Source of the DNA: Pseudomonas sp. MIACH
GTDB taxonomy: Bacteria; Pseudomonadota; Gammaproteobacteria; Pseudomonadales; Pseudomonadaceae
Length of the DNA: 46,135 nucleotides
Reading direction: 5' to 3'
Assembly (NCBI RefSeq): GCF_001269925.1
Contig: NZ_LHVO01000021.1
Span: forward strand, 1 to 46,135
Of this stretch, positions 91 to 15,434 are shown one piece after another. The stretch's first letter is position 1. Each line of letters opens with the position of its first letter. The notes under the pieces are model-generated. The model searched no databases and was not told the origin of the DNA. It worked only from the letters and a program-made list of their open reading frames with translations. Position numbers and translations under genes: made by a program.

Positions 91-180
<90 letters not shown>

Positions 181-183
181 TTT

Positions 184-456
184 GATCTTGATCTCAGGCG
201 CCCCGTTAACCACGCTGGCCGAACGCAGGCTTGAATCCGTGGGTAACCCGGCAGGACGCCGGGTTAGCCGTCCTGGGCCAAGGATGGCCCATGACGGCGG
301 CCCACGGATTCAAGCCGGAGTGAGGGCACACCGAGCCCAAGCGAGGTGCCGAGTGGTGGGGCAAGAGCCCTTTGGTTACTTTGGGGCTCTTTTCCAAAGT
401 GACCCGCCGTAAGGGCGGAACCAATATCAGCCGTTACCGCAGCAACGGATATGTAC
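184..456 (+). repeat. Structured dispersed repeat, copy A
   Basis: About 270 bases, nearly identical to copy C (15111-15384) and inverted relative to copy B (14615-14890). It folds into a 16-bp closing stem (228-243 with 301-316) around two hairpins. One is 244-252 with 258-266. The other is 267-272 with 293-298, capped by 275-279 with 286-290. Further hairpins follow, and the element ends in CGGATATGTAC. The tail lies about 10 bases beyond the narL stop codon, so narXL transcripts would run into the element. No coding potential. Confidence 0.9.
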
Positions 457-466
457 ACAAACAAAC

Positions 467-1114
467 TCACCCCGCCTGCCGCAAATGCTCCATCGCCCAA
501 ACCGCCGCCTCCACCCGCGACCGTAACCCCAACTTATGCAGCAAATTCTTCACATGCACCTTCACCGTCCCCTCGGTAATCCCCAACTTATGCCCGATCA
601 CCTTATTACTGTGCCCACTGGCAATCGTCCTCAGCACCTGCCGTTCCCGCTCGGTCAACTCCACCGCCGCATGCGGTTGCGGCGAGCGCAGGGCCTGGGC
701 CAGGACGCGGGTCAGGCCAGGGCTGATCACCAACGCGCCATGCAACGCATCACGGATGTACTGGATCAACAACTCCGGCTCCATGTCCTTGAGCAGATAG
801 CCATTGGCATCCAGCCGCAACGCATCACGAATATCGTCTTCAGCGTCGGACACGGTAAACAGCAACACCTTGCCGCCATAGTTCATGGCGCGCAGGCGGC
901 GCAGGGTTTCGAGGCCGTTCATGTGCGGCATGTTGTTGTCCAGCAGCACCAGGTCCGGTTGCAGCGCGTCGATCTGGTCCAGGGCTTCCTGGCCGTTGCC
1001 GGCTTCGCCGACCACTTGCAGGTCGTCTTCCAGTTCAAGCATCTGGCGCATGCCGTGGCGCATCATCGGGTGGTCGTCGACCAGCAGGATACGGTGGCGA
1101 TTGGCTGTGTTCAT
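467..1114 (-). CDS. narL: Nitrate/nitrite response regulator NarL
   Basis: A 215-residue two-component regulator of the NarL/FixJ family. When phosphorylated by NarX it should bind TACYNMT-type heptamers and activate the divergent nitrate-reductase operon. The N-terminal receiver domain shows the acidic pair in LVDDHP (Asp13-Asp14) and the phospho-acceptor Asp59 in LVLLDNNMP. The C-terminal LuxR-type helix-turn-helix (about 148-207) is clear from LTERERQVLR and the TEGTVKVHVKNLL recognition region. The start overlaps the narX stop by four bases (ATGA), indicating translational coupling. A copy of the structured repeat begins about 10 bases after the stop codon. Identity rests on family features plus the nar context; a very close NarP/FixJ-type paralogue is excluded mainly by position. 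Confidence 0.95.
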   Translation of the reverse strand: MNTANRHRILLVDDHPMMRHGMRQMLELEDDLQVVGEAGNGQEALDQIDALQPDLVLLDNNMPHMNGLETLRRLRAMNYGGKVLLFTVSDAEDDIRDALRLDANGYLLKDMEPELLIQYIRDALHGALVISPGLTRVLAQALRSPQPHAAVELTERERQVLRTIASGHSNKVIGHKLGITEGTVKVHVKNLLHKLGLRSRVEAAVWAMEHLRQAG

Positions 1115-2910
1115 GGGTGGGTGCCTTGTAGGGGTTGCCCGAGAAACTCCGGGTGAAAGCGCAGTTGCACCCGCGTGCCCTGGGGCTCGCGGGGGCTGAT
1201 GTCGAGGTGGCCCTGCAGGCTGCGGGCGCGCTCGTCCATGATGGTCAGGCCGTGGTGTTCACGTCTGTCGACCTCTTCGCAAAAACCACGGCCGTCATCT
1301 TCGATGCTCAGGCTCACGGTTTCGCCCTCCTGGCGCAGTTGCAGCCAGGCGTTTTGCGCATGGGCATGGCGCAGGCAGTTGGAGAGGGCTTCGCGGGTGA
1401 TCTGCAGCAAGTGGATTTGTTCGCTGGCCGACAGTTGGAAGGCCAGGGCGTCCACATGCAGGTGCACCTGGAATTCGCCGCGCTGGGAGAACTCTTCGGC
1501 GGTGTCCTGTAGCTCCTGCACCAGCCCGGCATCGTGGATTTGCAGGCGGAAGGTCGTGAGTAATTCGCGCAGTTGACGGTAGGCGTTGTTCAGGCCGTCG
1601 CGCAGTTCGGCGGTGACGGTGGCCAGGGTCTCCACCGGTTCGCCACGGCGGATCAGGGTTTGCATGCGGCTGACTTGCAGCTTCATGTAGGACAGCGCCT
1701 GGGCCAGGGAGTCGTGCAGTTCGCGGGCGATGATGGTGCGTTCGTCGAGCAGCAGCAGGCGGTGGTCCTGCTCCCGCTGGCGCTTGAGCGACAGCGAGGT
1801 GCCGATCAGGTTGGCCAGGGCCTGGATCAACTGTTTCTCCCAGTCCTGGGGCGCATGGCCGTCGAGGAAGTGCGCCTTGAGTTCACCCAGTTCCGCGCCC
1901 TGGTTGCTGATGCTGAACACCTGGGGCAGTGCGACGTGGATCTTCTGGCAGGAGGCGCAGTCGCCGATGGCGCAGACGTTACGGCCGTTCTCGTGCAGCG
2001 ACAACATCTGCTGGGCCGGCGCGAGGAAGTGCCCTTGCAGGCACAGCGACAGGCGCAGCCCTGGCAGACGTTTCTGGAAGCGCCGGATCAGTTCATCCAG
2101 GCCCTCGGCATTCGCCAGGCGCGTGGCCAGGCTGCGGCTGCTCTGGTAGAGCAGCTCGAGGGCGGCGTTGGCTTGTTGCAGGTTGAGGGTTTTCTGCCGC
2201 ACCTGGCTCTCCAGGGTGCGGTGGGATTCTTCAATGGTCTCGGCCATGGCGTTGAAGCTCAGGGCCAGTTGCCCCAACTCGTCTTCGGAGCGGTGGTTGA
2301 CCCGAGTCTTGAAGTCGCCGTCACGAAAGCGTCGGGTCGCGTGCACCAGTTCTTCCAGGGGGTTGACCACGCCGTACTGCAATTCATACAGGCCGATCAG
2401 CAGGATGATCAGCGTGCTGAACAGTGCCAGCCCCTGGATACCCTGCTGCCAGCCTTGTTTCTGTTCGCTCTGTTGCTGCAACAGGCTGACGAACTGGTTG
2501 AGTTGATCGACAAAACCCGGCGCGCTGGCCTGGAACAGCCCTGCGTCGCCGCGAGCCAGGGCCGGGTGCAGGTCATCGTTCCAGCGCTGCTGGATCTGTT
2601 GGTAGCTCTGGAGCAGGGCGCTGCGCGGGCCGTCTTCGAGCACCGCCTTGAGCGATTGGCTGTCGAGGCGTCCTTGCAGGCTGTGGATGATGGCGTCGAT
2701 CTCGGCGGCAGGGGCACCGGCGGCGAGTTTCCAGCTGAGGTGGTAGGTCTCCATGCGCACCGAGCCGGCGGTGTTGATGGCGGCCGCATCGCCCTGGCTG
2801 AACCAGGCGATCAAGCCGGCGCTCAGCGAACTGGCGAGGGCGAGGATGGCGATCAGGATCACCGCCAGACCGGCGCGAGCGGGCAGGGAGCTGCGCAGCC
2901 AGTTAAACAT
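1111..2910 (-). CDS. narX: Nitrate/nitrite sensor histidine kinase NarX
   Basis: A 599-residue inner-membrane sensor kinase. Transmembrane helices lie at about 13-37 and 158-180 and enclose a periplasmic domain. Its P-box INTAGSVRMETYHL (45-58) is the nitrate-binding signature of NarX/NarQ, including Arg52. A HAMP linker (about 181-233) and a central module follow, the latter with the cysteine cluster Cys313, Cys318, Cys321 seen in NarX. The HisKA_3 box contains the phospho-acceptor His399 in IARELHDSLAQAL. The C-terminal ATPase domain shows the EDDGRGF glycine-rich motif near the end. The length matches the family (about 600). It is the first gene of narXL and diverges from narK1 across a 309-base control region. 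No strong Shine-Dalgarno sequence is visible before the ATG at 2910, so the exact start is less certain than the identity. Confidence 0.96.
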   Translation of the reverse strand: MFNWLRSSLPARAGLAVILIAILALASSLSAGLIAWFSQGDAAAINTAGSVRMETYHLSWKLAAGAPAAEIDAIIHSLQGRLDSQSLKAVLEDGPRSALLQSYQQIQQRWNDDLHPALARGDAGLFQASAPGFVDQLNQFVSLLQQQSEQKQGWQQGIQGLALFSTLIILLIGLYELQYGVVNPLEELVHATRRFRDGDFKTRVNHRSEDELGQLALSFNAMAETIEESHRTLESQVRQKTLNLQQANAALELLYQSSRSLATRLANAEGLDELIRRFQKRLPGLRLSLCLQGHFLAPAQQMLSLHENGRNVCAIGDCASCQKIHVALPQVFSISNQGAELGELKAHFLDGHAPQDWEKQLIQALANLIGTSLSLKRQREQDHRLLLLDERTIIARELHDSLAQALSYMKLQVSRMQTLIRRGEPVETLATVTAELRDGLNNAYRQLRELLTTFRLQIHDAGLVQELQDTAEEFSQRGEFQVHLHVDALAFQLSASEQIHLLQITREALSNCLRHAHAQNAWLQLRQEGETVSLSIEDDGRGFCEEVDRREHHGLTIMDERARSLQGHLDISPREPQGTRVQLRFHPEFLGQPLQGTHP

Positions 2911-2994
2911 GGCGGCTTAAACGAAGGGGGATGGAAGCCTGCATGGCGGCACCTGCAAAGGGAAAAAGGCTGAAAACCGCAATCCCTGGCGCAC

Positions 2995-3001
2995 TACCTC
3001 T
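2995..3001 (+). promoter_or_regulatory. Upstream NarL heptamer
   Basis: TACCTCT matches the NarL heptamer consensus TACYNMT. The following AA-AGAATTG is a poor second half, so this may be a single half site, about 200 bases upstream of the predicted narK1 transcription start. Confidence 0.5.
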
Positions 3002-3050
3002 AAAGAATTGCCGGCCAACCCTCCCACGGGAAAATACCGGCACAAGAGAC

Positions 3051-3063
3051 CAATCCATTGATA
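3051..3063 (-). promoter_or_regulatory. IHF binding site
   Basis: The minus strand reads TATCAATGGATTG, a perfect match to the IHF consensus WATCAANNNNTTR. It lies between the two NarL sites, where DNA bending would bring distal NarL to the promoter. It sits in an AT-rich patch. Confidence 0.7.
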
Positions 3064-3091
3064 AATAAAGACTTTCTCTTGTTATTAGGAC

Positions 3092-3107
3092 TACCTCCTT
3101 AGAGGTA
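3092..3107. promoter_or_regulatory. Paired 7-2-7 NarL site
   Basis: TACCTCC-TT-AGAGGTA is an inverted pair of NarL heptamers with the two-base spacing preferred by NarL dimers. The right half is a perfect match and the left half differs at its last base. It is centred about 94 bases upstream of the predicted narK1 start of transcription. Confidence 0.75.
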
Positions 3108-3145
3108 TGCGGGGCCAGCATAGCTCCATACCCCCCAGGCGGACG

Positions 3146-3159
3146 TTGATCTGGGTCAA
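3146..3159 (+). promoter_or_regulatory. ANR/FNR box of the narK1 promoter
   Basis: TTGAT-CTGG-GTCAA is one mismatch from the symmetric FNR/ANR consensus TTGAT-N4-ATCAA. Its centre lies 41.5 bases upstream of about 3194, the classical class II activator position, and the -10 box TAACCT (3181-3186) fits that start. Confidence 0.85.
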
Positions 3160-3180
3160 GTTCCACGGGGGTGTCGCCCC

Positions 3181-3186
3181 TAACCT
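3181..3186 (+). promoter_or_regulatory. -10 element of narK1 promoter
   Basis: TAACCT fits the extended TAnnnT pattern and lies 21 bases after the ANR box, predicting transcription from about 3193-3194. The ATG at 3193 would then have no leader, so translation should start at the GTG at 3220. Confidence 0.6.
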
Positions 3187-3219
3187 GCGCTCATGGAATC
3201 ACTTTCTGGAGCGCATACC

Positions 3220-4476
3220 GTGACTCAACCCCGTATGAGACAGGGCCTGGTGCTGGGCATGAGCACCCTGGCTTTCACCGTCTGCTTTATGGTGTGGATG
3301 ATGTTCGCCGTGTTGGGCGTACCCATCAAAGAGCTGTTGCAACTCAACGAAACCCAGTTCGGCCTGCTGGCCGCCACGCCGGTGTTGACCGGTTCCCTGG
3401 TGCGCTTGCCCCTGGGCCTGCTGACTGACCGCTTCGGCGGGCGCATCGTGTTCTTCCTGTTGATGCTCGCCTGTGTGCTGCCGCTGTACCTGATCACCTA
3501 CGCCACCGCCTATTGGCAGTTCCTGGTGCTGGGCCTGTTCGTCGGCCTGGCCGGCGGTTCGTTTTCGGTGGGCATCGCCTACGTCGCCAAGTGGTTCGAC
3601 AAAGAGAACCAGGGCTTTGCCATGGGCGTGTTCGGCGCCGGCAACGCGGGCGCCGCCGTCACCAAGTTTCTGGCCCCGGCGCTGATCGCCCTCGGCACCT
3701 GGCACCTGGTGCCCAAGGTGTTCGGCGCGATCCTGTTTATCACTGCGCTGCTGTTCTGGTTTCTCACCAGCGAGAACAAGGCCCACCGCAATGCCGACGG
3801 CGCCACTTTGCGCGAGCAGTTGCTGTGCCTGAAGGACCCGGCCGTGTGGCGCTACTGCCAGTACTACTCGATTGTGTTCGGCGGCTATGTGGCCCTGGCG
3901 CTGTGGATGACCAAGTACTACGTGCAGGAATACGGCTTCAGCCTGCAAAGCGCCGCGTTGCTGGCCGCGTGTTTCTCCCTGCCGGGCGGCGTGCTGCGTG
4001 CGGTGGGCGGCTGGATGTCCGACCGCTGGGGCGCCCAGAGCGTGACCTGGTGGGTGCTGTGGGTGAGCTGGATCTGCCTGTTCCTGCTCAGCTACCCGCA
4101 GACCCAATTGCAGGTGCAGACCGTCAACGGTCCCCTGGATTTCCACATCGGCCTCAACGCCACCCTGTTCACCGTGCTGCTGTTTGTGATGGGCATCGCC
4201 TTCGCGTTCGGCAAGGCCTCGGTGTTCAAGTACATCGCCAATGACTACCCACAGAACATGGGCGCGGTGTCCGGCATCGTCGGCCTGGCCGGTGGCCTGG
4301 GCGGCTTTGTGCTGCCGATCCTGTTTGGCGCCCTGGTGGACCTCACCGGCGTGCGCTCGTCCTGCTTCATGTTGATGTACGGCGTGGTCTGGGTGTCCCT
4401 GACCTGGATGTACTTCAGCGAAATGCGCAAGCAACCGCTGTTGGGCAAAACCGCCCAACCTCTCCAAGGAGAATGA
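3220..4476 (+). CDS. narK1: Nitrate/nitrite transporter NarK1 (MFS)
   Basis: A major-facilitator protein of about 418 residues with some twelve hydrophobic helices in the inner membrane. NarK1-type proteins are proposed nitrate/proton symporters that start nitrate import before any nitrite is available. The nitrate-signature region is visible in GVFGAGNAGAAVTKF, and the loop motif GGWMSDRWGAQSV is typical of the family. I chose the GTG at 3220, preceded by CTGGAG at eight bases, over the in-frame ATG at 3193. The ATG coincides with the predicted transcription start and has no ribosome site. It is the first gene of the narK1K2GHJI operon. The family is certain; the symport role is inferred from order and known pseudomonad pairs. 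Confidence 0.92.
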   Translation: MTQPRMRQGLVLGMSTLAFTVCFMVWMMFAVLGVPIKELLQLNETQFGLLAATPVLTGSLVRLPLGLLTDRFGGRIVFFLLMLACVLPLYLITYATAYWQFLVLGLFVGLAGGSFSVGIAYVAKWFDKENQGFAMGVFGAGNAGAAVTKFLAPALIALGTWHLVPKVFGAILFITALLFWFLTSENKAHRNADGATLREQLLCLKDPAVWRYCQYYSIVFGGYVALALWMTKYYVQEYGFSLQSAALLAACFSLPGGVLRAVGGWMSDRWGAQSVTWWVLWVSWICLFLLSYPQTQLQVQTVNGPLDFHIGLNATLFTVLLFVMGIAFAFGKASVFKYIANDYPQNMGAVSGIVGLAGGLGGFVLPILFGALVDLTGVRSSCFMLMYGVVWVSLTWMYFSEMRKQPLLGKTAQPLQGE

Positions 4477-4478
4477 AC

Positions 4479-5876
4479 ATGTCCATCGCGCAAAAGCCCG
4501 GCTCGGGGCCGGTGATCCACGACTGGCGCCCTGAAGACCCTGCGTTCTGGGGCGCCAGCGGCAAGAAGACCGCGACCCGCAACCTGTGGATCTCGATCCC
4601 TGCGCTGTTGCTGGCCTTCGCCGTGTGGATGGTGTGGAGCACGGTGATCGTGCGCCTGAACGCCATCGGCTTTATGTTCACCACCGACCAGCTGTTCTGG
4701 CTGGCGGCGTTGCCGGGTTTGTCCGGTGCCACCTTGCGGGTGTTCTACTCGTTCATGGTGCCGATCTTCGGCGGCCGCCGCTGGACCGCCCTGAGCACCG
4801 CGTCGCTGTTGCTGCCGTCGCTGTGGATGGGCTTTGCGGTGCAAGACCCCAACACCCCCTACAGCGTGTTTGTACTGATCGCGCTGCTGTGCGGTTTCGG
4901 CGGCGGCAACTTCGCCTCGAGCATGTCCAACATCAGCTTCTTCTACCCCAAGTCGCAGCAAGGCACGGCCCTGGGCCTGAACGCCGGCCTCGGCAACCTG
5001 GGGGTGTCGGTGATGCAGTTCTGCGTCCCGCTGGTGATCACGTTCGGCGTGTTCGGCCTGGTGGGCGGTCAACCGCAAACCTTGCCGGATGGCAGTCAAC
5101 TCTGGCTGCAGAACGCCGGTTTTATCTGGGTGCCTTTTATCCTCACCGTCACCGTGGCGGCCTGGTTCGGCATGAACGACCTGTCCAGCGCCCGTGCTTC
5201 GTTCAGCGAGCAGGCGGTGATCTTCAAGCGCAAGCACAACTGGCTGATGTGCTGGTTGTACCTGGCGACCTTCGGCTCCTTCATCGGCTTTTCGGCGGCG
5301 TTCCCGCTGCTGATCAAGACCTCGTTCCCCGACGTGGTGGCGTTGAAATTCGCCTTCCTCGGCCCACTCGTCGGTGCCCTGGTGCGCCCACTCGGCGGCT
5401 GGCTGGCGGACAAAATGGGCGGCGCACGGGTGACCTTGTGGAACTTCGTGCTGATGATCGTGATGGTGTTCGGCGTGCTGCACTTTTTGCCGGTGAACGG
5501 GCAGGGCGGCAGCTTCTACGGTTTCCTCGGCATGTTCATGCTGCTGTTCATCACCACCGGCGTCGGCAATGGCTCCACCTTCCGCATGATCCCGGTGATC
5601 TTCCGCACCCAGCACGAGAAGGCCAGTGCCGGTAAATCGGCCGCCGAGCGCGAGCAGGCGATCAAGGATGCCGGCAAGGAATCCGCCGCCGTGCTGGGCT
5701 TCAGTTCGGCCATGGGCGCCTTCGGTGCGTTCTTCATTCCCAAGTCCTTCGGCACGTCCATGGCCGCCACCGGCAGCCCGGCGATGGCCTTCTACATGTT
5801 TGTCGGTTTCTACCTGAGCTGCATCGTCGTGACCTGGTGGTGGTACGCCCGCAAAGGCTGCGCCACACCCTGCTGA
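4479..5876 (+). CDS. narK2: Nitrate/nitrite antiporter NarK2 (MFS)
   Basis: A 465-residue major-facilitator transporter, longer than NarK1 and of the NarK2/NarU type. Such proteins exchange cytoplasmic nitrite for nitrate and sustain respiration. The family motif is seen in GFGGGNFASSMSNISFF and the second nitrate signature in GLNAGLGNLGVSVMQF. Two ATGs are possible. The one at 4473 overlaps the narK1 stop but lies one base from the AAGGAG at 4466-4471. The one at 4479 has ideal spacing of seven and is chosen. Near the C-terminus a charged cytoplasmic loop (EKASAGKSAAEREQAIKDAG) precedes the last helices, as in other NarK2 proteins. It is cotranscribed with narK1 and narG. Confidence 0.92.
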   Translation: MSIAQKPGSGPVIHDWRPEDPAFWGASGKKTATRNLWISIPALLLAFAVWMVWSTVIVRLNAIGFMFTTDQLFWLAALPGLSGATLRVFYSFMVPIFGGRRWTALSTASLLLPSLWMGFAVQDPNTPYSVFVLIALLCGFGGGNFASSMSNISFFYPKSQQGTALGLNAGLGNLGVSVMQFCVPLVITFGVFGLVGGQPQTLPDGSQLWLQNAGFIWVPFILTVTVAAWFGMNDLSSARASFSEQAVIFKRKHNWLMCWLYLATFGSFIGFSAAFPLLIKTSFPDVVALKFAFLGPLVGALVRPLGGWLADKMGGARVTLWNFVLMIVMVFGVLHFLPVNGQGGSFYGFLGMFMLLFITTGVGNGSTFRMIPVIFRTQHEKASAGKSAAEREQAIKDAGKESAAVLGFSSAMGAFGAFFIPKSFGTSMAATGSPAMAFYMFVGFYLSCIVVTWWWYARKGCATPC

Positions 5877-5933
5877 TCGACCCGAATTCGCCGGGGCAAC
5901 GCACCCCACGGCACGCCTGATGAGGAAAGCATC

Positions 5934-8900: not shown

Positions 8901-9707
8901 CTGGCGATCTCCAAGGCCCACGAAGCGATCCGCTTCCGCGACATCCAGGCGCAGCCGCGCAAGATCATCTCCAGCCCGACCTGGTCAGGCCTGGAAGACG
9001 AGCATGTGAGCTACAACGCCGGCTACACCAACGTGCATGAAAACATCCCATGGCGCACCATCACCGGCCGCCAGCAGTTCTACCAGGATCACCCGTGGAT
9101 GCAGGCGTTCGGCGAGCAGCTGATGAGCTACCGGCCACCGGTCAACACCCGCACCATCGAAGGGGTGAAGGGCAAGCGCAGCAATGGCGAGACCGAGATC
9201 GTGCTGAACTGGATCACCCCGCACCAGAAGTGGGGCATCCACAGCACCTACAGCGACAACCTGCTGATGCTCACCCTGAGCCGTGGCGGACCGATCGTGT
9301 GGCTCTCGGAAATCGACGCCAAGCGCGCCGGCATCGAAGACAACGACTGGATCGAATGCTTCAACGTCAACGGTGCATTGACCGCCCGTGCGGTGGTCAG
9401 CCAGCGCGTCAAGGAAGGCATGGTGATGATGTACCACGCCCAGGAACGCATCGTGAACGTGCCGGGTTCGGAAACCACCAAGACCCGTGGCGGCCACCAC
9501 AACTCGGTGACCCGCGTGGTGCTCAAGCCGACCCACATGATCGGCGGCTATGCCCAGCAGGCCTACGGTTTCAACTACTACGGCACGGTCGGTTGCAACC
9601 GCGATGAGTTTGTCGTGGTGCGCAAGATGGCCAAGGTCGACTGGCTCGATGGCTCCAGCGGTGATGATTTGCCGCGCCCATTGCCGACTGACATCGAGGA
9701 GAACTGA
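5934..9707 (+). CDS. narG: Respiratory nitrate reductase alpha subunit NarG
   Basis: A 1257-residue catalytic subunit that reduces nitrate to nitrite at a bis-MGD molybdenum centre on the cytoplasmic face of the membrane. The N-terminal FS0 cluster ligands are visible as His50, Cys54, Cys58 (HGVNCTGSCSW) and Cys93 (RGCPRGASYSW), the unusual His-Cys3 set of NarG. The stretch SNYIIAWGSNVPQTRTPDAH carries the region of the molybdenum Asp ligand. The length equals that of E. coli NarG (about 1247). A ribosome site (GAGGAAAG) precedes the ATG. It is followed after one base by narH. There is no twin-arginine signal, as expected for a cytoplasm-facing subunit. Complete, with no sign of decay. Confidence 0.98.
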   Translation: MSHLLDQLRFFNRKQNEFSDGHGETRKESRDWENVYRSRWQYDKIVRSTHGVNCTGSCSWKIYVKNGLITWETQQTDYPRTRNDLPNHEPRGCPRGASYSWYIYSANRLKYPKIRKPLLKLWRDARQTLSPVEAWASIVEDKVKADSYKSKRGMGGFIRSNWEEVNEIIAASNVYTIKQYGPDRIVGFSPIPAMSMVSYAAGSRYLSLIGGVCLSFYDWYCDLPPASPMVWGEQTDVPESADWYNSNYIIAWGSNVPQTRTPDAHFFTEVRYKGTKTVAITPDYSEVAKLTDLWLNPKQGTDAALAQAFNHVIFKEFHLDKPSAYFTDYAKRFTDLPVLVMLKPMTGFAPGAGFQPDRFLRASDLTGNLGQDNNPEWKTIALDESGELVSPQGSIGYRWGEKGKWNILAKEGGEGRAIDLKLSLIGDDVAEVAFPYFAGEAHEHFQHVAGDAVQFRRVPVHSVTLADGSVAKVATVFDLSAANLAIDRGLGGQNVAKDYDDASVPGTPAWQEAITGVSREKAIQIAREFADNADKTKGRSMIIVGAAMNHWYHMDMNYRGLINMLMLCGCVGQTGGGWAHYVGQEKLRPQCGWLPLAFGLDWNRPPRQMNGTSFFYGHSSQWRHEKMSMHDVLSPLADKSQFPEHALDYNIRAERAGWLPSAPQLNTNPLHICRDAAAAGMTPKDYVVKSWQDGSLRFACEQPDSPVNFPRNMFIWRSNLLGSSGKGHEYMLKYLLGTKNGVMNEDIGHSTECKPTEAEWVEDGAIGKLDLVTTLDFRMSSTCVYSDIVLPTATWYEKDDMNTSDMHPFIHPLSAAIDPAWESRSDWEIYKGIAKAFSAMSVGHLGVEQDLVTVPLMHDSVGELAQPFGGTDWKSAGVAPVPGKNAPNMAVVERDYPNIYKQFSSLGPMLEKLGNGGKGINWNTDEEVEFLGELNHHESAAGISHGRPKIDTAIDAAEVILSLAPETNGKVALKAWAALSEFTGIDHSHLAISKAHEAIRFRDIQAQPRKIISSPTWSGLEDEHVSYNAGYTNVHENIPWRTITGRQQFYQDHPWMQAFGEQLMSYRPPVNTRTIEGVKGKRSNGETEIVLNWITPHQKWGIHSTYSDNLLMLTLSRGGPIVWLSEIDAKRAGIEDNDWIECFNVNGALTARAVVSQRVKEGMVMMYHAQERIVNVPGSETTKTRGGHHNSVTRVVLKPTHMIGGYAQQAYGFNYYGTVGCNRDEFVVVRKMAKVDWLDGSSGDDLPRPLPTDIEEN

Positions 9708-9708
9708 G

Positions 9709-11247
9709 ATGAAAATTCGCTCACAGATCGGCATGGTCCTCAACCTGGACAAATGCATCGGCTGCCACACCTGTTCCATCACCTGCAAAAACGTGTGGAC
9801 CAGCCGTGAAGGCATGGAATACGCCTGGTTCAACAACGTCGAGTCCAAGCCCGGCATCGGCTACCCCAAGGAGTGGGAGAACCAGGACAAGTGGAAGGGC
9901 GGCTGGGTGCGCAACGCCAACGGCTCGATCAACCCACGCATCGGCGGCAAGTTCCGCGTGTTGGCGAACATCTTCGCCAACCCCGACCTGCCGAGCCTGG
10001 ACGACTACTACGAGCCGTTCGACTTCGACTATCAGCACTTGCACACCGCGCCATTGGGCGAGCACCAGCCGACCGCACGCCCGCGTTCGCTGGTGTCCGG
10101 CAAGCGCATGGAAAAGATCGAGTGGGGCCCGAACTGGGAGGAAATCCTCGGCACCGAATTCGCCAAGCGCCGCAAGGACAAGAACTTCGACCAGATCCAG
10201 GCCGACATTTATGGCGAGTACGAAAACACCTTCATGATGTACCTGCCGCGCCTGTGCGAGCACTGCCTAAACCCGGCGTGTGCGGCATCCTGCCCGAGCG
10301 GTGCGATCTACAAGCGTGAAGAAGACGGCATCGTGCTGATCGACCAGGAGAAGTGCCGGGGCTGGCGCATGTGCATCAGCGGCTGCCCGTACAAGAAAAT
10401 CTACTTCAACTGGAAGAGCGGCAAATCCGAGAAGTGCATCTTCTGCTACCCGCGTATCGAAGCCGGTATGCCGACCGTGTGCGCCGAAACCTGTGTGGGT
10501 CGGATTCGCTACCTCGGTGTGCTGCTGTATGACGCCGACCGCATCAGCGAAGTGGCCAGCACCGCCAACGAGCAGGACCTGTACGAGAAGCAACTGGAGA
10601 TCTTCCTCGACCCGAATGACCCGGCGGTGATTCGCCAGGCCCTGGCCGATGGCGTGCCGCAGTCGGTGATCGACTCGGCCCAGCGTTCGCCGGTGTACAA
10701 AATGGCCGTCGACTGGAAGTTGGCACTGCCGCTGCACCCGGAATACCGCACCTTGCCGATGGTCTGGTACGTGCCGCCGCTGTCACCGATCCAGAACGCC
10801 GCCGCTGCCGGCACCGTGGGCATGAACGGGGTGATCCCGGATGTGGACAGCCTGCGCATCCCCCTGCGCTACCTGGCCAACATGCTCACCGCCGGCGATG
10901 AAAAACCGGTCAAGCGTGCACTCAAGCGCCTGTTGGCGATGCGCGCCTACAAACGCTCCCAGCAAGTCGATGGCGTGCAGGACCTGCAAGTGCTCGAAGA
11001 CGTCGGCCTGAGCGTTGAACAGGTGGAAGAGATGTACCGCTACCTGGCCATTGCCAACTACGAAGACCGCTTCGTGGTACCGAGCGCCCACCGTGAAGAC
11101 GCCATGAGCGACGCGTTCGCCGAACGCTCCGGCTGTGGCTTCAGCTTCGGCAGCGGTTGCAGCGGCAGCTCTGACACCAACATGTTCGGCGCCAAGAAGG
11201 CCAACCGCCGTGACGTGCTGAAAACCGTCCAGATCTGGGAGGACTGA
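9709..11247 (+). CDS. narH: Respiratory nitrate reductase beta subunit NarH
   Basis: A 512-residue iron-sulfur subunit that passes electrons from NarI haem to NarG. All four cluster groups are visible: CIGCHTCSITC (Cys16, 19, 22, 26), CEHCLNPACAASCP, CRGWRMCISGCP and CIFCYPR with CAETC. In the third group a Trp replaces one cysteine, which gives the three-iron cluster FS4 as in E. coli. The ATG at 9709 begins one base after the narG stop and has GAGGAG upstream inside the narG end. The open frame extends further upstream inside narG, but that part has no NarH character. The C-terminal end is rich in Gly, Ser and Cys (GCGFSFGSGCSGSS), a feature also found at the N-terminus of the PPIase two genes further on. 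Confidence 0.98.
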   Translation: MKIRSQIGMVLNLDKCIGCHTCSITCKNVWTSREGMEYAWFNNVESKPGIGYPKEWENQDKWKGGWVRNANGSINPRIGGKFRVLANIFANPDLPSLDDYYEPFDFDYQHLHTAPLGEHQPTARPRSLVSGKRMEKIEWGPNWEEILGTEFAKRRKDKNFDQIQADIYGEYENTFMMYLPRLCEHCLNPACAASCPSGAIYKREEDGIVLIDQEKCRGWRMCISGCPYKKIYFNWKSGKSEKCIFCYPRIEAGMPTVCAETCVGRIRYLGVLLYDADRISEVASTANEQDLYEKQLEIFLDPNDPAVIRQALADGVPQSVIDSAQRSPVYKMAVDWKLALPLHPEYRTLPMVWYVPPLSPIQNAAAAGTVGMNGVIPDVDSLRIPLRYLANMLTAGDEKPVKRALKRLLAMRAYKRSQQVDGVQDLQVLEDVGLSVEQVEEMYRYLAIANYEDRFVVPSAHREDAMSDAFAERSGCGFSFGSGCSGSSDTNMFGAKKANRRDVLKTVQIWED

Positions 11248-11250
11248 GCC

Positions 11251-12006
11251 ATGCGCATTCTTAAAGTGATTTCGTTGCTGCTCGACTACCCCACTGAAAC
11301 CCTGGTGAACGGTCGCGATGAACTGGAGCAGGCGATTCTTGAAGCACGGGAAATCAGCCCCAAGCAGCGCGGTGCGTTGTTCGAACTGCTGGAACTGATC
11401 TGCGCCAATGACCTGATGGACGGCCAGGAACACTACGGCGCGTTGTTTGGCCGGGGGCGTTCGCTGTCGCTGTTGTTGTTCGAACACGTGCACGGCGAGT
11501 CCCGCGACCGCGGCCAGGCCATGGTCGACATGATGGCCCAGTACGAGGAGGCCGGCTTCGCCATTGGCGTCAAGGAGCTGCCGGACTACATCCCGCTGTA
11601 CCTGGAGTTCCTGTCCACCCGCGAAGACATCGAGGCCCGCGAGGGCCTGGCGGATGTGGCGCACCTGTTGGCCTTGCTCGCTGCGCGTCTGGACGAGCGT
11701 GAGAGCGGCTATGCCAGTTGCTTCCGTGCGCTGTTGCAGATTGCCGGCGCCGAGCCGCACCAGGCCGTGGCCGAACTGCGTGCCCAGGTCGCCGCCGAAC
11801 CGCGCGACGACTCCCTCGAAGCCCTGGACAAAATCTGGGAAGAGGAAGCGGTGGACTTTATGCAGGCTGAGCAACAGGACCGCTGCAGCTCGATGCCAAG
11901 CGCCCCCGGCAAGGCCCGCGAAGAAAGCGCGGTGCCGTTGCATTGGGTGGATTTTCAGCAAGAAGGCCGGGCCACAGCGCCAGCCGGGGAGGTGGGTAAT
12001 GTCTAA
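11251..12006 (+). CDS. narJ: Nitrate reductase assembly chaperone NarJ
   Basis: A 251-residue soluble chaperone of the NarJ/TorD family that binds the NarG N-terminus and allows cofactor insertion before membrane docking. It is largely helical and acidic. Characteristic NarJ signatures are LLDYPTE near the start and GVKELPDYIPLYLEFLS in the middle. The length matches the family (about 230-250). It starts three bases after the narH stop (ATG at 11251) and overlaps narI by eight bases, so it is translationally coupled on both sides. It is not part of the mature enzyme. Confidence 0.96.
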   Translation: MRILKVISLLLDYPTETLVNGRDELEQAILEAREISPKQRGALFELLELICANDLMDGQEHYGALFGRGRSLSLLLFEHVHGESRDRGQAMVDMMAQYEEAGFAIGVKELPDYIPLYLEFLSTREDIEAREGLADVAHLLALLAARLDERESGYASCFRALLQIAGAEPHQAVAELRAQVAAEPRDDSLEALDKIWEEEAVDFMQAEQQDRCSSMPSAPGKAREESAVPLHWVDFQQEGRATAPAGEVGNV

Positions 12007-12679
12007 GTGGAATTTGCTGGTATTCGGGGTGTATCCCTATGTGGCCCTGGCGATCTGCCTGTTGGGCAGTTGGGCGCGGTTCGACCTGTCGCAGTACACC
12101 TGGAAGGCCGGTTCCAGCCAGATGCTCAACAACCGGGGCATGCGCGTGGCGAGCAACTTCTTCCATATCGGCGTGCTGTTCGTGCTGGCCGGGCATTTTG
12201 TCGGCCTGCTGACCCCGGCGTCGGTTTACCACCATGTGATCAGCACTGAGAACAAGCAGTTGCTGGCGATGATCTCGGGTGGCTTCTTCGGCCTGCTGTG
12301 CCTGGTGGGCCTGCTGATGCTGGTCAAGCGTCGCCTGGGGGACCCGCGCGTGCGGGCGACCTCGAGCCCGTCGGACATCCTGATCCTGCTGGTGTTGCTG
12401 GCGCAGTTGCTGCTGGGCCTGCTGACCATCGTCGCCTCCACCGGGCATATGGACGGCTCGGTGATGGTGATGCTCGCCGACTGGGCGCAGAACGTGGTGC
12501 TGTTGCGGCCGGTGGAAGCCGCCGAGTCGATTGCGCCGGTGTCGCTGATCTACAAGGCCCACGTGGCGCTGGGCTTGACCCTGTTCGTGCTGTTCCCATT
12601 TACCCGCTTGGTGCACATGGTCAGCGCGCCGATCTGGTACCTGGGGCGTCGTTATCAAATCGTGCGGCAGAAGTACTGA
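11999..12679 (+). CDS. narI: Respiratory nitrate reductase gamma subunit NarI
   Basis: A 226-residue integral membrane cytochrome b subunit that oxidises quinol and feeds electrons to NarH. Five hydrophobic helices are apparent. Histidines placed to hold the two b haems are found in FFHIGVLFVLAGHFVGL and in YKAHVALGLTLF ... RLVHMV. The length and start (MSKWNLLVFGVYPYVALAI) match NarI. The ATG at 11999 lies within the end of narJ, preceded by GGGGAGG. It is the last structural subunit of the reductase. The PPIase gene follows after ten bases. Confidence 0.97.
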   Translation: MSKWNLLVFGVYPYVALAICLLGSWARFDLSQYTWKAGSSQMLNNRGMRVASNFFHIGVLFVLAGHFVGLLTPASVYHHVISTENKQLLAMISGGFFGLLCLVGLLMLVKRRLGDPRVRATSSPSDILILLVLLAQLLLGLLTIVASTGHMDGSVMVMLADWAQNVVLLRPVEAAESIAPVSLIYKAHVALGLTLFVLFPFTRLVHMVSAPIWYLGRRYQIVRQKY

Positions 12680-12689
12680 GGAGAACGTC

Positions 12690-13604
12690 ATGACTACAGG
12701 ATGCGGATGTGGTGGCGGTAACGGCGGCAGCGGTGGTTGCGGCTCGTCGGCCAAAGAACCGGTGGTGGCCCAGGCTTCTTTCGAGGAGATCAAGGCGCCG
12801 GAGTTGATCGCCAGCAGTGAACAGGAATGGCCGATCATCAGCGTCAACGGCGTGGCGGTCACCCCCGAGGCCATGGCCCTGGAGTTGCAATACCACCCGG
12901 CCGACAGCCGTGAGGAAGCGGTGTACCTGGCCGCCCGCGCGCTGGTGATCCGCGAGCTGTTGCAACAGCGGATCGCCGAGCTGGGCCTGGCGGTGGAAAT
13001 CGCCGCCGGAGAGAACGAAGAGGAAGCCGCCACGCGCCTGCTGCTGGAGCGTGAGGTGACGGTACCCGACTGCGACGAGGCGACCTGTGTGCGCTACTTC
13101 GAGAACAACCGTGGGCGCTTTCACAGCGCGCCGTTGCTGGCGGCGCGGCACATTCTGCTTGAATGCGCGCCGGACGACGCCGAGGCGCGCCACCTGGCGC
13201 GCACCCAGGCCGAAGTCCTGCTGCTGAGCCTGGAAGAACAACCGGGCCAATTTGCCGAACTGGCGCTCAAGTATTCGGCCTGTCCGTCCAAGGCCCAGGG
13301 CGGTTCGCTGGGCCAGGTGAGCAAGGGCCAGACCGTGCCGGAGTTGGAGCGCCAGTTGTTCACCCTGGCCCCAGGTTTGGCCGCCAAGCCGCTGGAGAGC
13401 CGTTATGGCTGGCACGTGATCAGCGTCGACCAACGTATCGAAGGCCAGCCGTTGCCGTATGAAGCGGTGGCCGTGGCGATTCGCACCCAGTTGCAGCAAG
13501 GGGTGTGGCAGAAGGCATTGGTGCAGTACCTGCAAACCCTGATCGGCGCAGCGGACATCCGCGGCATCGCGCTGCAGGGTGCCGACTCACCGTTGGTGCA
13601 GTGA
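12690..13604 (+). CDS. Parvulin-type peptidyl-prolyl isomerase of the nar operon
   Basis: A 304-residue protein with a rotamase (PpiC/parvulin) domain at about 145-245. It is recognised from [45 protein letters not shown] and [11 protein letters not shown]. The N-terminal part resembles the SurA/NifM helical arm. The first twenty residues are an unusual Cys-Gly-Ser segment ([17 protein letters not shown]) with four cysteines and no signal peptide, so the protein is probably cytoplasmic. It sits between narI and moaA, as in other denitrifying pseudomonads, and may help fold a nitrate-reductase subunit; that role is inference. The start has GAGGAGA nine bases upstream. An alternative view is a metal- or cluster-binding tail as in SlyD, but that is a different family. 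Confidence 0.88.
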
Positions 13605-13605
13605 C

Positions 13606-14592
13606 ATGAGCCTGGTGGATGGGGTGGGCCGTTCGATCGATTACCTGCGCTTGTCGGTGACCGACCGTTGCGATTTTCGCTGTGTGTACTGCATGGCGAA
13701 AAACATGACATTCCTGCCGCGCCAGCAGGTGCTGAACCTGGAAGAACTGCAACGCCTGGCCGCGCTGTTTGTGGGGCAGGGCGTACGCAAGATCCGCCTG
13801 ACTGGCGGCGAGCCGCTGATTCGCCCGGGCATTGTCGGGCTGTGCCGCAACATCGCGGCGCTGCCGGGCTTGCGTGAACTGGTGATGACCAGCAATGGCT
13901 CGCAGTTGGCGCGACTGGCGCGGCCGTTGGTGGATGCGGGGGTCAAACGCATGAACATCAGCCTCGATAGCCTGGATGCGTCGCGCTTTCGTGGGATTAC
14001 CCGCAACGGTGATCTGCGCCAGGTGCTGGACGGTATCGAGGTCGCGCGGGAGGCGGGGTTCGAGCGGGTCAAGCTCAATTGCGTGGTGATGAAGGGGCGC
14101 AACTTTGACGAGGTTCCGGCGTTGGTGCGGTATGCCATTGACCAGGGTGTCGACATCAGTTTTATCGAGGAAATGCCCCTGGGGGACGTGGGGCGGTCGC
14201 GGGGGGAGACCTTCTGCGCCAGCGATGAAGTACGGGCGGTGATTGCCCGTGAGCATGGGTTGATCGACAGCACCGAGAACAGCGGAGGGCCAGCGCGGTA
14301 TGTGCGGTTGGCGGCGCATCCTGGGACGCGGGTGGGGTTTATTTCGCCTAATTCGCATAACTTTTGTGGCAGTTGTAATCGGGTACGGATGACGGTGGAA
14401 GGGCAGTTGCTGCTGTGCCTGGGGCAGGAGGAGGCGCTGGATTTTCGCGCTTTGTTACGGCGCTATCCGTTGGAGGATGGGCCGTTGGTTGAGGCGTTGC
14501 ACAGGGGGTTGAAGGGCAAGCCGTTGCGGCATGATTTCAGTGGGGAGGGGGAGGTGCAGGTGGTGCGGTTTATGAATATGAGTGGGGGGTGA
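13606..14592 (+). CDS. moaA: GTP 3',8-cyclase MoaA (nar-linked copy)
   Basis: A 328-residue radical-SAM enzyme that, with MoaC, converts GTP to cyclic pyranopterin monophosphate, the first step of molybdenum-cofactor synthesis. The N-terminal cluster is Cys22, Cys26, Cys29 (RCDFRCVYC). The C-terminal cluster is [19 protein letters not shown]. The SAM-binding TGGEP is present, and the chain ends with the double glycine (MSGG) needed for activity. The start at 13606 lies one base after the PPIase stop; an upstream in-frame ATG at 13579 lies inside that gene and is not preferred. A moaA gene at the end of the nar operon supplies cofactor when nitrate reductase is made; a housekeeping paralogue is likely elsewhere. 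The structured repeat starts 23 bases after the stop. Confidence 0.95.
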
Positions 14593-14614
14593 GGGGTGTG
14601 TGGGGTGGTACTGA

Positions 14615-14890
14615 GTACATATCCGTTTCTTCGGTAACGGCTACTTAGGGTTCCGCTCTTACAGCGGGTCACTTTTGGAGGGACCCAAAAGTAACCAAAA
14701 GGTCCTCGCCCCAACACTCGGCACCTCGCCTAGGCTCGGTGTGCCCGAACGAAGGCTTTGGAGCGTGGGCCGCCGCGATGGGCCATCCTTGGCCCAGCGC
14801 GGCTAACCCGGCGTCCTGCCGGGTTACCCACGCTCCAAAGCCTGCGTTCGGCCAGCGTGTTTGACGGGGCGATTTGAGATCAAGAGCCAA
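14615..14890 (-). repeat. Structured dispersed repeat, copy B (inverted)
   Basis: An inverted, diverged copy of the element at 184-456. The closing stem (14754-14769 with 14827-14842) uses GGCTTTGGAGCGTGGG and its complement, differing at five positions from copies A and C yet fully paired. A second stem is GCCGCG/CGCGGC in place of GCCGTC/GACGGC. The tail (GTACATATCCG) lies just after moaA, so the operon transcript reads into it in the same orientation as narXL reads into copy A. Confidence 0.9.
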
Positions 14891-14941
14891 AGCGCGGCGG
14901 CCTGAGAGCCGACCGGAGTTGGGTCTGGTGTACTGGGTTAA

Positions 14942-15051
14942 AAATGTGGGAGGGGGCTTGCCCCCGATGAGGGAGTGTCGGTCACTTATTTTTTAACTGA
15001 CCCGGCGCTATCGGGGGCAAGTCGAATCGTCGCACCGCCCCTCCCACATTT
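14942..15051. repeat. REP pair (REPIN-like) with one variant arm
   Basis: Two REP sequences in inverted orientation: a left arm GTGGGAGGGGGCTTGCCCCC and a right arm ending in CTCCCACATTT, enclosing about 60 bases. The right arm carries a 16-base insert (15022-15037) that is also found, inverted, in the REP at 20076-20115. Paired REPs of this kind are moved in trans by RAYT transposases; none is encoded here. Confidence 0.85.
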
Positions 15052-15110
15052 GGATCTCCACATATCAGCTAGACCTCGGTCTGCTTTTGCTCTGCTTTTG
15101 CTCTGGCTTT

Positions 15111-15384
15111 TGATCTTGATCCTAGGCGCCCCGTCAAACACGCTGGCCGAACGCAGGCTTGAATCCGTGGGTAACCCGGCAGGACGCCGGGTTAGCCGTC
15201 CTGGGCCAAGGATGGCCCATGACGGCGGCCCACGGATTCAAGCCGGAGTGAGGGCATGCCGAGCCTAGGCGAGGCACCGAGTGTTGGGGCAAGAGCCCTT
15301 TGGTTACTTTGGGGCTCTTTTCCAAAGTGACCCGCTGTAAGAGCGGAACCATAGGCCGCCGTTACCTAAATAACGGATATGTAC
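15111..15384 (+). repeat. Structured dispersed repeat, copy C
   Basis: Nearly identical to copy A over the core. The closing stem is 15156-15171 with 15229-15244. Differences from A are largely compensated: a distal stem reads TGCC/GGCA where A has CACC/GGTG, and the terminal hairpin reads CCGCT/AGCGG where A has CCGCC/GGCGG. The tail ends 14 bases before the ANR box of the nrd promoter. It stands head-to-head with copy B; the 220 bases between them hold only the REP pair and no gene. Confidence 0.9.
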
Positions 15385-15398
15385 CCAATCAAAAAAGC

Positions 15399-15412
15399 TT
15401 GACCCCGATCAA
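15399..15412 (+). promoter_or_regulatory. ANR/FNR box of the nrdD promoter
   Basis: TTGAC-CCCG-ATCAA is one mismatch from the ANR consensus. The centre is 41.5 bases upstream of about 15447, and TAATAT at 15435-15440 forms a good -10 element. Anaerobic induction by ANR (or DNR) is expected, fitting an oxygen-sensitive enzyme. Confidence 0.85.
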
Positions 15413-15434
15413 GGGAAGCAAAACCCAGTCTCCG

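What the first reader, a model, noticed from the sequence alone, without database searches (positions are those of the whole stretch)
184..15384. Dispersed 270-bp repeat with compensatory stem changes
Copies A (184-456), B (14615-14890, inverted) and C (15111-15384) share a fold. The 16-bp closing stem differs at five positions between A/C (GGCTTGAATCCGTGGG) and B (GGCTTTGGAGCGTGGG), yet the opposite arms change to match. Another stem is GCCGTC/GACGGC in A/C and GCCGCG/CGCGGC in B. A distal stem is CACC/GGTG in A/B and TGCC/GGCA in C. The last hairpin is CCGCC/GGCGG in A and CCGCT/AGCGG in C. That is about ten covarying pairs. The folded form, RNA or cruciform DNA, seems to be what selection keeps. 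It could be an unnamed structured RNA or a non-autonomous element.
Basis: seen in the sequence. Interest (0 to 1): 0.82.

Follow-up and report, generated by a model that had tools for sequence, protein, structure and literature searches.

The report
Dispersed Rsm/CsrA decoy RNA repeats
A 270-base non-coding repeat, present about 30 times in this bacterium, keeps compensating changes that preserve one fold with two GGA hairpin loops like the known target of the global regulator RsmA/CsrA, so its RNA copies would likely act together as a decoy for that regulator.

Summary
Observation confirmed: copies A, B and C are real and the ten stated covarying pairs check out. The genome holds 30 BLAST matches of at least 140 bp. 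The element is not unnamed: each core passes Rfam RF01731 TwoAYGGAY (50-59 bits, cut-off 43), which shares clan CL00106 with the Rsm-binding RNA RsmZ. In relatives, 18 of 45 core pairs and 10 of 41 flanking pairs covary beyond a tree-aware null; two supported helices cross. Changes to G-U outnumber changes to A-C 42 to 5, so one strand folds, which disfavours a cruciform. Loops keep A(N)GGA while stems drift, matching the published high-affinity RsmE site. Close neighbours are inverted in 77 of 80 cases; copies are nearly absent from plasmids and phages. Best reading: transcripts would hold an Rsm/CsrA dimer and act as a distributed decoy. Transcription and binding were not tested. A published P. 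putida pull-down of Rsm-bound 'long palindromic' intergenic DNA may be this element; I could not check. Known family, in a large, paired, high-copy form.

The parts
183..456 (+). copy A, whole element (right half of a pair cut by the contig end)
14615..14885 (-). copy B, whole element (left member of a divergent pair)
15111..15384 (+). copy C, whole element (right member of the pair)
221..323 (+). TwoAYGGAY core of A (RF01731, 50.4 bits)
14739..14857 (-). TwoAYGGAY core of B (RF01731, 58.7 bits)
15149..15251 (+). TwoAYGGAY core of C (RF01731, 50.4 bits)
228..243 (+). A: 5' arm of closing stem P2 (partner 301-316)
   Evidence: sequence; covariation
301..316 (+). A: 3' arm of closing stem P2
   Evidence: sequence; covariation
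245..265 (+). A: hairpin H1, loop AGGAC at 253-257
267..298 (+). A: hairpin H2 with basal part P3, loop AAGGAT at 280-285
363..404 (+). A: crossing helices PA (GAGCCC with GGGCTC) and P5 (GGTTACTTTGG with CCAAAGTGACC)
   Evidence: sequence; covariation
404..418 (+). A: hairpin P6
14785..14790 (-). B: H2 loop AAGGAT on the minus strand
   Evidence: sequence
14813..14817 (-). B: H1 loop AGGAC on the minus strand
   Evidence: sequence
15181..15185 (+). C: H1 loop AGGAC
   Evidence: sequence
15208..15213 (+). C: H2 loop AAGGAT
   Evidence: sequence
14886..15110 (.). centre of the B/C pair, holding a REP-like doublet and GCTCTGGC/GCTTTT repeats
   Evidence: sequence

Best explanation
The three copies belong to a chromosomal repeat family, often laid in inverted pairs, whose sense strand keeps covarying helices and matches Rfam TwoAYGGAY, and whose transcripts would likely act as a decoy by holding an Rsm/CsrA dimer on their two A(N)GGA hairpin loops. 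Shown here: the fold is kept by covariation; the strand bias of wobble changes marks the GGA strand as the folded one; the loops keep A(N)GGA while stems drift; close copies are inverted. From papers: an ANGGAX hexaloop directly on a stem is the high-affinity RsmE site (PMC4005645, passages), and CsrA is a dimer whose halves each bind one such hairpin (PMC4333381, passages). Inferred and untested: that the copies are transcribed, by read-through from neighbours; that Rsm proteins bind them; that dozens of copies shift the free Rsm pool. An inverted pair would put one sense copy into a transcript whichever way read-through runs.
For: Family and clan. Covariation: 18 of 45 core pairs, 10 of 41 flanking pairs on an alignment not fitted to the structure, 28 of 45 pairs changed on both sides against 19.9 in shuffles on the MAFFT alignment A2. 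Strand: 42 to 5. Loops: GGA kept in 62 of 62 H1 and 61 of 62 H2 loops anchored in related copies; outside the genus 17 of 17 H1 and 13 of 17 H2 (one of 18 loci dropped). Loop spacing 22 or 23 nt in 41 of 41 instances of a scan that allowed 14-40. RsmE bound ATGGA and AGGGA hairpins best (PMC9928087, passages), the commonest loops of the family. The genome has three CsrA-family genes and an RsmZ gene. In P. putida KT2440 RsmA, RsmE and RsmI all pulled down intergenic regions, one called a long palindromic region (PMC7937890, passages); P. putida-type genomes carry this element as long palindromic pairs.
Against: No transcription or binding data. The KT2440 regions were not shown to be this element. 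The authors of that study hold rsmY and rsmZ to be the main, if not the only, true Rsm antagonists. Window copies have the weaker loop forms: H1 AGGAC lacks N (lower affinity in PMC4005645), H2 AAGGAT is not among the two motifs RsmE bound effectively in PMC9928087. Three of 17 H2 loops outside the genus are ACGAC and one lacks the A. RF01731 itself models the GGA loops, so its hits are selected for them. No promoter-like site at B/C, though only 0.4 were expected; no GacA box in the element loci. About half of the copies are not in close pairs. Whole-helix cassettes are exchanged between copies, so rows are not independent.
Confidence: 0.5

Rival explanations
1. Cis-acting 3'-end element: read-through transcripts carry the fold, and Rsm binding or the PA/P5 region changes the stability or end of the neighbouring message, without any global decoy effect.
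For: In Pseudomonas sp. BP8, 19 classifiable pairs of 20 lie between convergent (11) or co-directional (8) genes and none between divergent gene starts (ORF heuristic). Some copies have a stem followed by TTTT (sequence). Rfam types the family as cis-regulatory.
Against: Copies lie in either orientation to neighbouring genes; in the own genome no clear 3'-UTR rule was seen. In L217 the genes have terminator-like hairpins of their own before the pair (sequence). The 2010 list marks it probably not cis-regulatory.
Confidence: 0.2
2. Selfish or non-autonomous element: the fold serves copying or insertion through RNA or single-stranded DNA, and GGA loops are used by or protect the intermediate.
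For: High copy number (111 in one genome), nearly always inverted close neighbours (77 of 80), strong within-genome likeness, patchy spread over genera. Single-stranded DNA of the sense strand would also show the G-T bias.
Against: No transposase looked for or seen to belong to it; nearly absent from plasmids and phages; at moaA-nrdD relatives differ by loss, shortening and stem change. I did not search for target-site duplications systematically.
Confidence: 0.2
3. Cruciform DNA or protein-binding palindrome acting at the DNA level.
For: Inverted pairs make long palindromes.
Against: Strand bias of changes, G-U 42 to A-C 5; the antisense strand scores 24-54 bits against 66-123 for the sense strand with model R1; A(N)GGA is kept on one strand.
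Confidence: 0.05

Closest known systems
TwoAYGGAY RNA (Rfam RF01731, clan CL00106)
   Same: Core passes the family cut-off in all three copies: long closing stem, two hairpins with A(N)GGA loops.
   Different: The unit here is about 270 nt, with an outer stem, P4, crossing helices PA/P5, P6 and P7; it is a high-copy repeat with inverted close neighbours. Loops are ANGGAY or AGGAC rather than strict AYGGAY.
RsmZ/RsmY and CsrB-type Rsm/CsrA-sequestering sRNAs
   Same: Same Rfam clan; GGA in hairpin loops.
   Different: No promoter or GacA box found; two GGA hairpins instead of three or more; dispersed copies instead of one gene.
REP/REPIN and other Pseudomonas intergenic repeats, including SBW25 family R200 (320 bp, 47 copies in SBW25; PMC2718517, passages)
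   Same: Dispersed, intergenic, able to fold; R200 is similar in length and number.
   Different: REPs are far shorter. Identity with R200 is open: its consensus is only in a supplement that I could not read.
ISPpu8-flanking 'long palindromic' regions of P. putida KT2440, bound by RsmA/E/I (PMC7937890, passages)
   Same: Intergenic, long palindromes, bound by Rsm proteins; relatives of KT2440 carry this element in convergent pairs.
   Different: Not shown to be the same sequence; KT2440 was not in reach.

Membership tests
TwoAYGGAY RF01731 | score at or above the family's gathering cut-off (43 bits) | tested here: met
   58.7, 50.4, 50.4 bits
TwoAYGGAY RF01731 | two adjacent hairpins inside one closing stem | tested here: met
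   folds and covariation
TwoAYGGAY RF01731 | both terminal loops read AYGGAY | tested here: inconclusive
   window copies have AGGAC and AAGGAT, so the strict motif is not met; in related copies H2 is ATGGAT in 46 of 62 and H1 in 23 of 62
Rsm/CsrA-sequestering sRNA (RsmX/Y/Z type) | several GGA motifs in hairpin loops | tested here: met
   two per element
Rsm/CsrA-sequestering sRNA (RsmX/Y/Z type) | own promoter with GacA box (TGTAAG-N6-CTTACA, recalled) | tested here: not met
   exact box absent from the element loci, found in four rsmY loci as a positive control; no promoter-like site
Rsm/CsrA-sequestering sRNA (RsmX/Y/Z type) | binds Rsm/CsrA protein and relieves repression | not testable with these tools
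   needs EMSA and reporter assays
REP/REPIN | short palindrome of about 20-40 bp (recalled) | tested here: not met
   about 270 bp, many helices
MITE or other non-autonomous transposon | ends recognised by a transposase, target-site duplication, new insertions | tested here: inconclusive
   one locus compared in 30 regions, 13 read: sharing, loss and conversion, no clean new insertion; transposases not searched
R200 repeat of P. fluorescens SBW25 | sequence match to the published consensus | not tested
   consensus only in a supplement not readable here

The most novel reading that the evidence does not exclude
A genome-wide distributed sponge: tens to more than a hundred dispersed copies, with inverted neighbours so that read-through from either side yields one sense fold, together buffer the free pool of Rsm/CsrA, while each genome homogenises its own stem sequence and the GGA loops stay fixed.
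Probability: 0.25. Interest if true: 0.88.

Novelty: new variant of a known kind. Interest (0 to 1): 0.64.

Why it matters
Control by RsmA/CsrA is thought to be set by a few dedicated small RNAs. If dozens of intergenic repeats per genome add binding sites, the regulator's free pool would depend on repeat load, which differs from none detected to over a hundred between species. It would give a function to a large class of intergenic palindromes, could explain Rsm-bound intergenic regions reported in P. putida, and makes a poorly understood Rfam family testable.

Tried and rejected
Cruciform DNA: disfavoured by the strand bias. Unlike arms within a pair, to avoid a perfect palindrome: several own-genome pairs are type 2 with type 1, but in 20 pairs of Pseudomonas sp. 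BP8 the arms are 95-100% alike and no different from arms of other pairs, so dropped. Copy number following CsrA paralogue number: not seen. mir-652 at 14953-15026: 31.6 bits against a cut-off of 73, lies on the REP-like doublet. Gene orientation in the own genome by an ORF heuristic: no clear rule. P. hunanensis contigs ending at the element were first read as a sign of an adjacent IS; the breaks lie inside or just after the element, so no support. First tally of pair orientation (79 of 81) was redone with all genomes and without fragments under 140 bp of the own genome: 77 of 80.

Literature searches that showed no paper describing this repeat as Rsm-binding: (open-licence PMC library only). 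Papers: only passages found by term search were seen of PMC4333381, PMC2864571, PMC2718517, PMC7937890, PMC4005645, PMC9928087, PMC11701678, PMC4353343 and PMC6849547; all others only as search listings.
Full report
What was checked. As RNA they fold with z-scores of -6.3, -9.6 and -6.9, none of 200 shuffles as stable.

It has a name. All three cores score above the cut-off of Rfam RF01731, TwoAYGGAY: 50.4, 58.7 and 50.4 against 43 bits. Rfam places it in clan CL00106; a scan of the RsmZ gene found in this same genome shows RsmZ in that clan too. TwoAYGGAY was listed in 2010 as a probable RNA, probably not cis-regulatory, in human gut, gamma-proteobacteria and Clostridiales (PMC2864571). A 2014 motif study predicted CsrA-binding sRNAs of this family in Clostridia (PMC4333381). 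I saw no paper that describes the repeat in these terms; the searches were made, in an open-licence library only.

Anatomy. From outside in: an outer stem P1 (GCCCC with GGGGC; CCAC/GTGG or ACAC/GTGT), a closing stem P2 of up to 25-26 pairs, hairpin H1 with loop AGGAC or ANGGAY, and hairpin H2 with its basal part P3 and loop ANGGAY; then hairpin P4, two crossing helices PA and P5, hairpins P6 and P7, and an end GGATATGTAC in most own-genome copies. A scan for two A(N)GGA hairpins 14-40 nt apart gave 41 distinct instances in the first loci, all with loops 22 or 23 nt apart.

Covariation. Sixty-three unique cores, aligned by model R1 (built from the 39 sequences of A2), give 18 of 45 pairs with E below 0.05 against simulations on the sequences' own tree; no pair outside the structure passes the test over all pairs, which is stricter. 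That alignment was fitted to the structure, so two unfitted checks were made. On the MAFFT alignment A2 the structure pairs 84% of cells, against 73% in shuffles and 32-47% when slid by 1-3 columns, and 28 pairs change on both sides. With arms counted outward from the loops without gaps, each of the eight H1 pairs holds in 98-100% of 62 rows, against 16-46% when shifted. On 55 unfitted rows 10 of 41 flanking pairs covary: one in P1, two in P4, three in P5, two in PA, two in P6, none in P7. The three outer PA pairs are not supported there (46-90% paired). PA and P5 cross, so they form a pseudoknot or exclude each other. A caution: stem differences can travel as whole cassettes. At the C position one relative has a type 1 closing stem with a type 3 inner hairpin (L193) and another has type 3 (L195). 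The number of independent events is therefore lower than the number of rows.

Which strand. Counted on the tree, Watson-Crick pairs turned into G-U 42 times and into A-C 5 times. A structure formed equally by both DNA strands should give about equal numbers. The strand with GGA loops is the one that folds. Single-stranded DNA of that strand is not excluded.

The loops. In 62 anchored rows H1 is ATGGAT 23, AGGAC 17, AGGGAT 13, AAGGAT 8, AGGAT 1; H2 is ATGGAT 46, AAGGAT 7, AGGGAT 6 and three others, one of which has lost GGA. Among 17 loci from the class sample (one of 18 dropped), 17 H1 loops and 13 H2 loops keep A(N)GGA; three H2 loops are ACGAC and one lacks the A. These hits were found with a model that itself contains the loops. 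Solved RsmE complexes define the high-affinity site as an ANGGAX hexaloop directly on a stem; dropping N lowers affinity (PMC4005645). In another assay RsmE effectively bound only ATGGA and AGGGA hairpins (PMC9928087). The family's commonest loops fit RsmE best; the window copies (AAGGAT and AGGAC) fit less well. This genome has three CsrA-family genes.

Number and spread. This genome: 30 BLAST matches of 140 bp or more. Named genomes: 7 of 8 with a match, P. taiwanensis 10, P. hunanensis 6, P. entomophila 4, P. monteilii 4, P. juntendi 1, P. mosselii 1, P. guariconensis 0, Pseudomonas sp. BP8 111. Class sample: 17 of 276 genomes, 16 of 216 genera, own genome included, with the same core plan; 0 of 14 control genomes. 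Plasmids: 1 of 72,556 records with two queries; phages: 1 of 50,697 with one query; 16 viral contigs hold one pattern match.

Inverted neighbours. Of copies less than 1.6 kb apart, Pseudomonas sp. BP8 has 31 divergent, 1 convergent and 1 tandem of 33; 19 other genomes, 189 copies, have 35 divergent, 10 convergent and 2 tandem of 47. So 77 of 80 are inverted. The convergent form is seen in P. monteilii, P. taiwanensis (2 of 3) and G057, which carry a P. putida-type sequence; the divergent form in the rest. About half of all copies have no close neighbour. B and C are a divergent pair around a REP-like doublet. In BP8, of 20 pairs read, 19 could be classified: 11 between convergent and 8 between co-directional genes, none between divergent gene starts (ORF heuristic).

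History at one locus. Thirty regions before nrdD were compared and thirteen read. Relatives with 97-98% identity in nrdD have the whole pair (L188), a shortened B (L189), or only the outermost bases of both copies (L190). L195 (91%) has the pair with another stem type, L193 only C, L194, L196 and L199 none, L191, L192 and L197 remnants, and L207 (83%) a B-like copy. The picture is sharing, loss and conversion.

Mechanism. Committed reading: transcripts that run through a copy fold and hold an Rsm/CsrA dimer on H1 and H2, and many copies together act as a decoy. Shown: fold, strand, loops, inverted neighbours, spread. Inferred: transcription, binding, effect. Supporting but not decisive: in P. 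putida KT2440, RsmA, RsmE and RsmI all pulled down intergenic regions next to ISPpu8 or resembling its flanks, one called a long palindromic region (PMC7937890). I could not reach the KT2440 sequence. Relatives of it carry the element as long palindromic pairs; I did not search for a transposase beside them. Against: no promoter-like site at B/C, where only 0.4 were expected, no GacA box, no rise of copy number with CsrA paralogues (Spearman -0.20), and those authors' own conclusion that rsmY and rsmZ are the main antagonists. The cis-acting 3'-end reading and the selfish-element reading remain open.

Verdict. A real, strongly structured element; a member by score of a known Rfam family in the RsmZ clan, though the strict AYGGAY loops are not met in the window copies; in a form (about 270 nt, crossing helices, high copy, inverted neighbours) that I did not find described.

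Noticed in passing
window 97-180 and 15084-15110: Tandem GGCTCT hexamers (and GCTTTT/GATCTT variants) run up to the 5' end of A and C; similar hexamer or TTGATC runs precede many copies in other genomes.
   Followed up: partly
window 14946-15049: A REP-like doublet (GTGGGAGGGGGCTTGCCCCCGAT and its inverted partner) sits in the centre of the B/C pair; in L188 the centre holds a different spacer between the same ends.
   Followed up: no
window 15395-15415: TTGACCCCGATCAA, an ANR/FNR-like box (recalled), stands between copy C and the anaerobic ribonucleotide reductase gene and is kept in the relatives read.
   Followed up: no
L217-L236 (Pseudomonas sp. BP8): Over a hundred copies nearly alike within one genome (cores 95-100% alike) while other species have different stems: concerted evolution.
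   Followed up: partly
L080-L097: Copies in other families share a downstream helix of the type GTTCGTTTTCTTTG/CAAAGAAAATGAAC followed by CTCGC, which looks like the counterpart of P5.
   Followed up: partly
L099 (NZ_VWXI01000006.1): A record titled Pantoea sp. Cy-639 carries an rsmY-type terminator match and an exact GacA box like Pseudomonas rsmY loci; it may be mislabelled.
   Followed up: no
window 467-2910 (-): Response regulator and HAMP/PilJ histidine kinase pair (NarX/NarL-like by domains) next to copy A.
   Followed up: no
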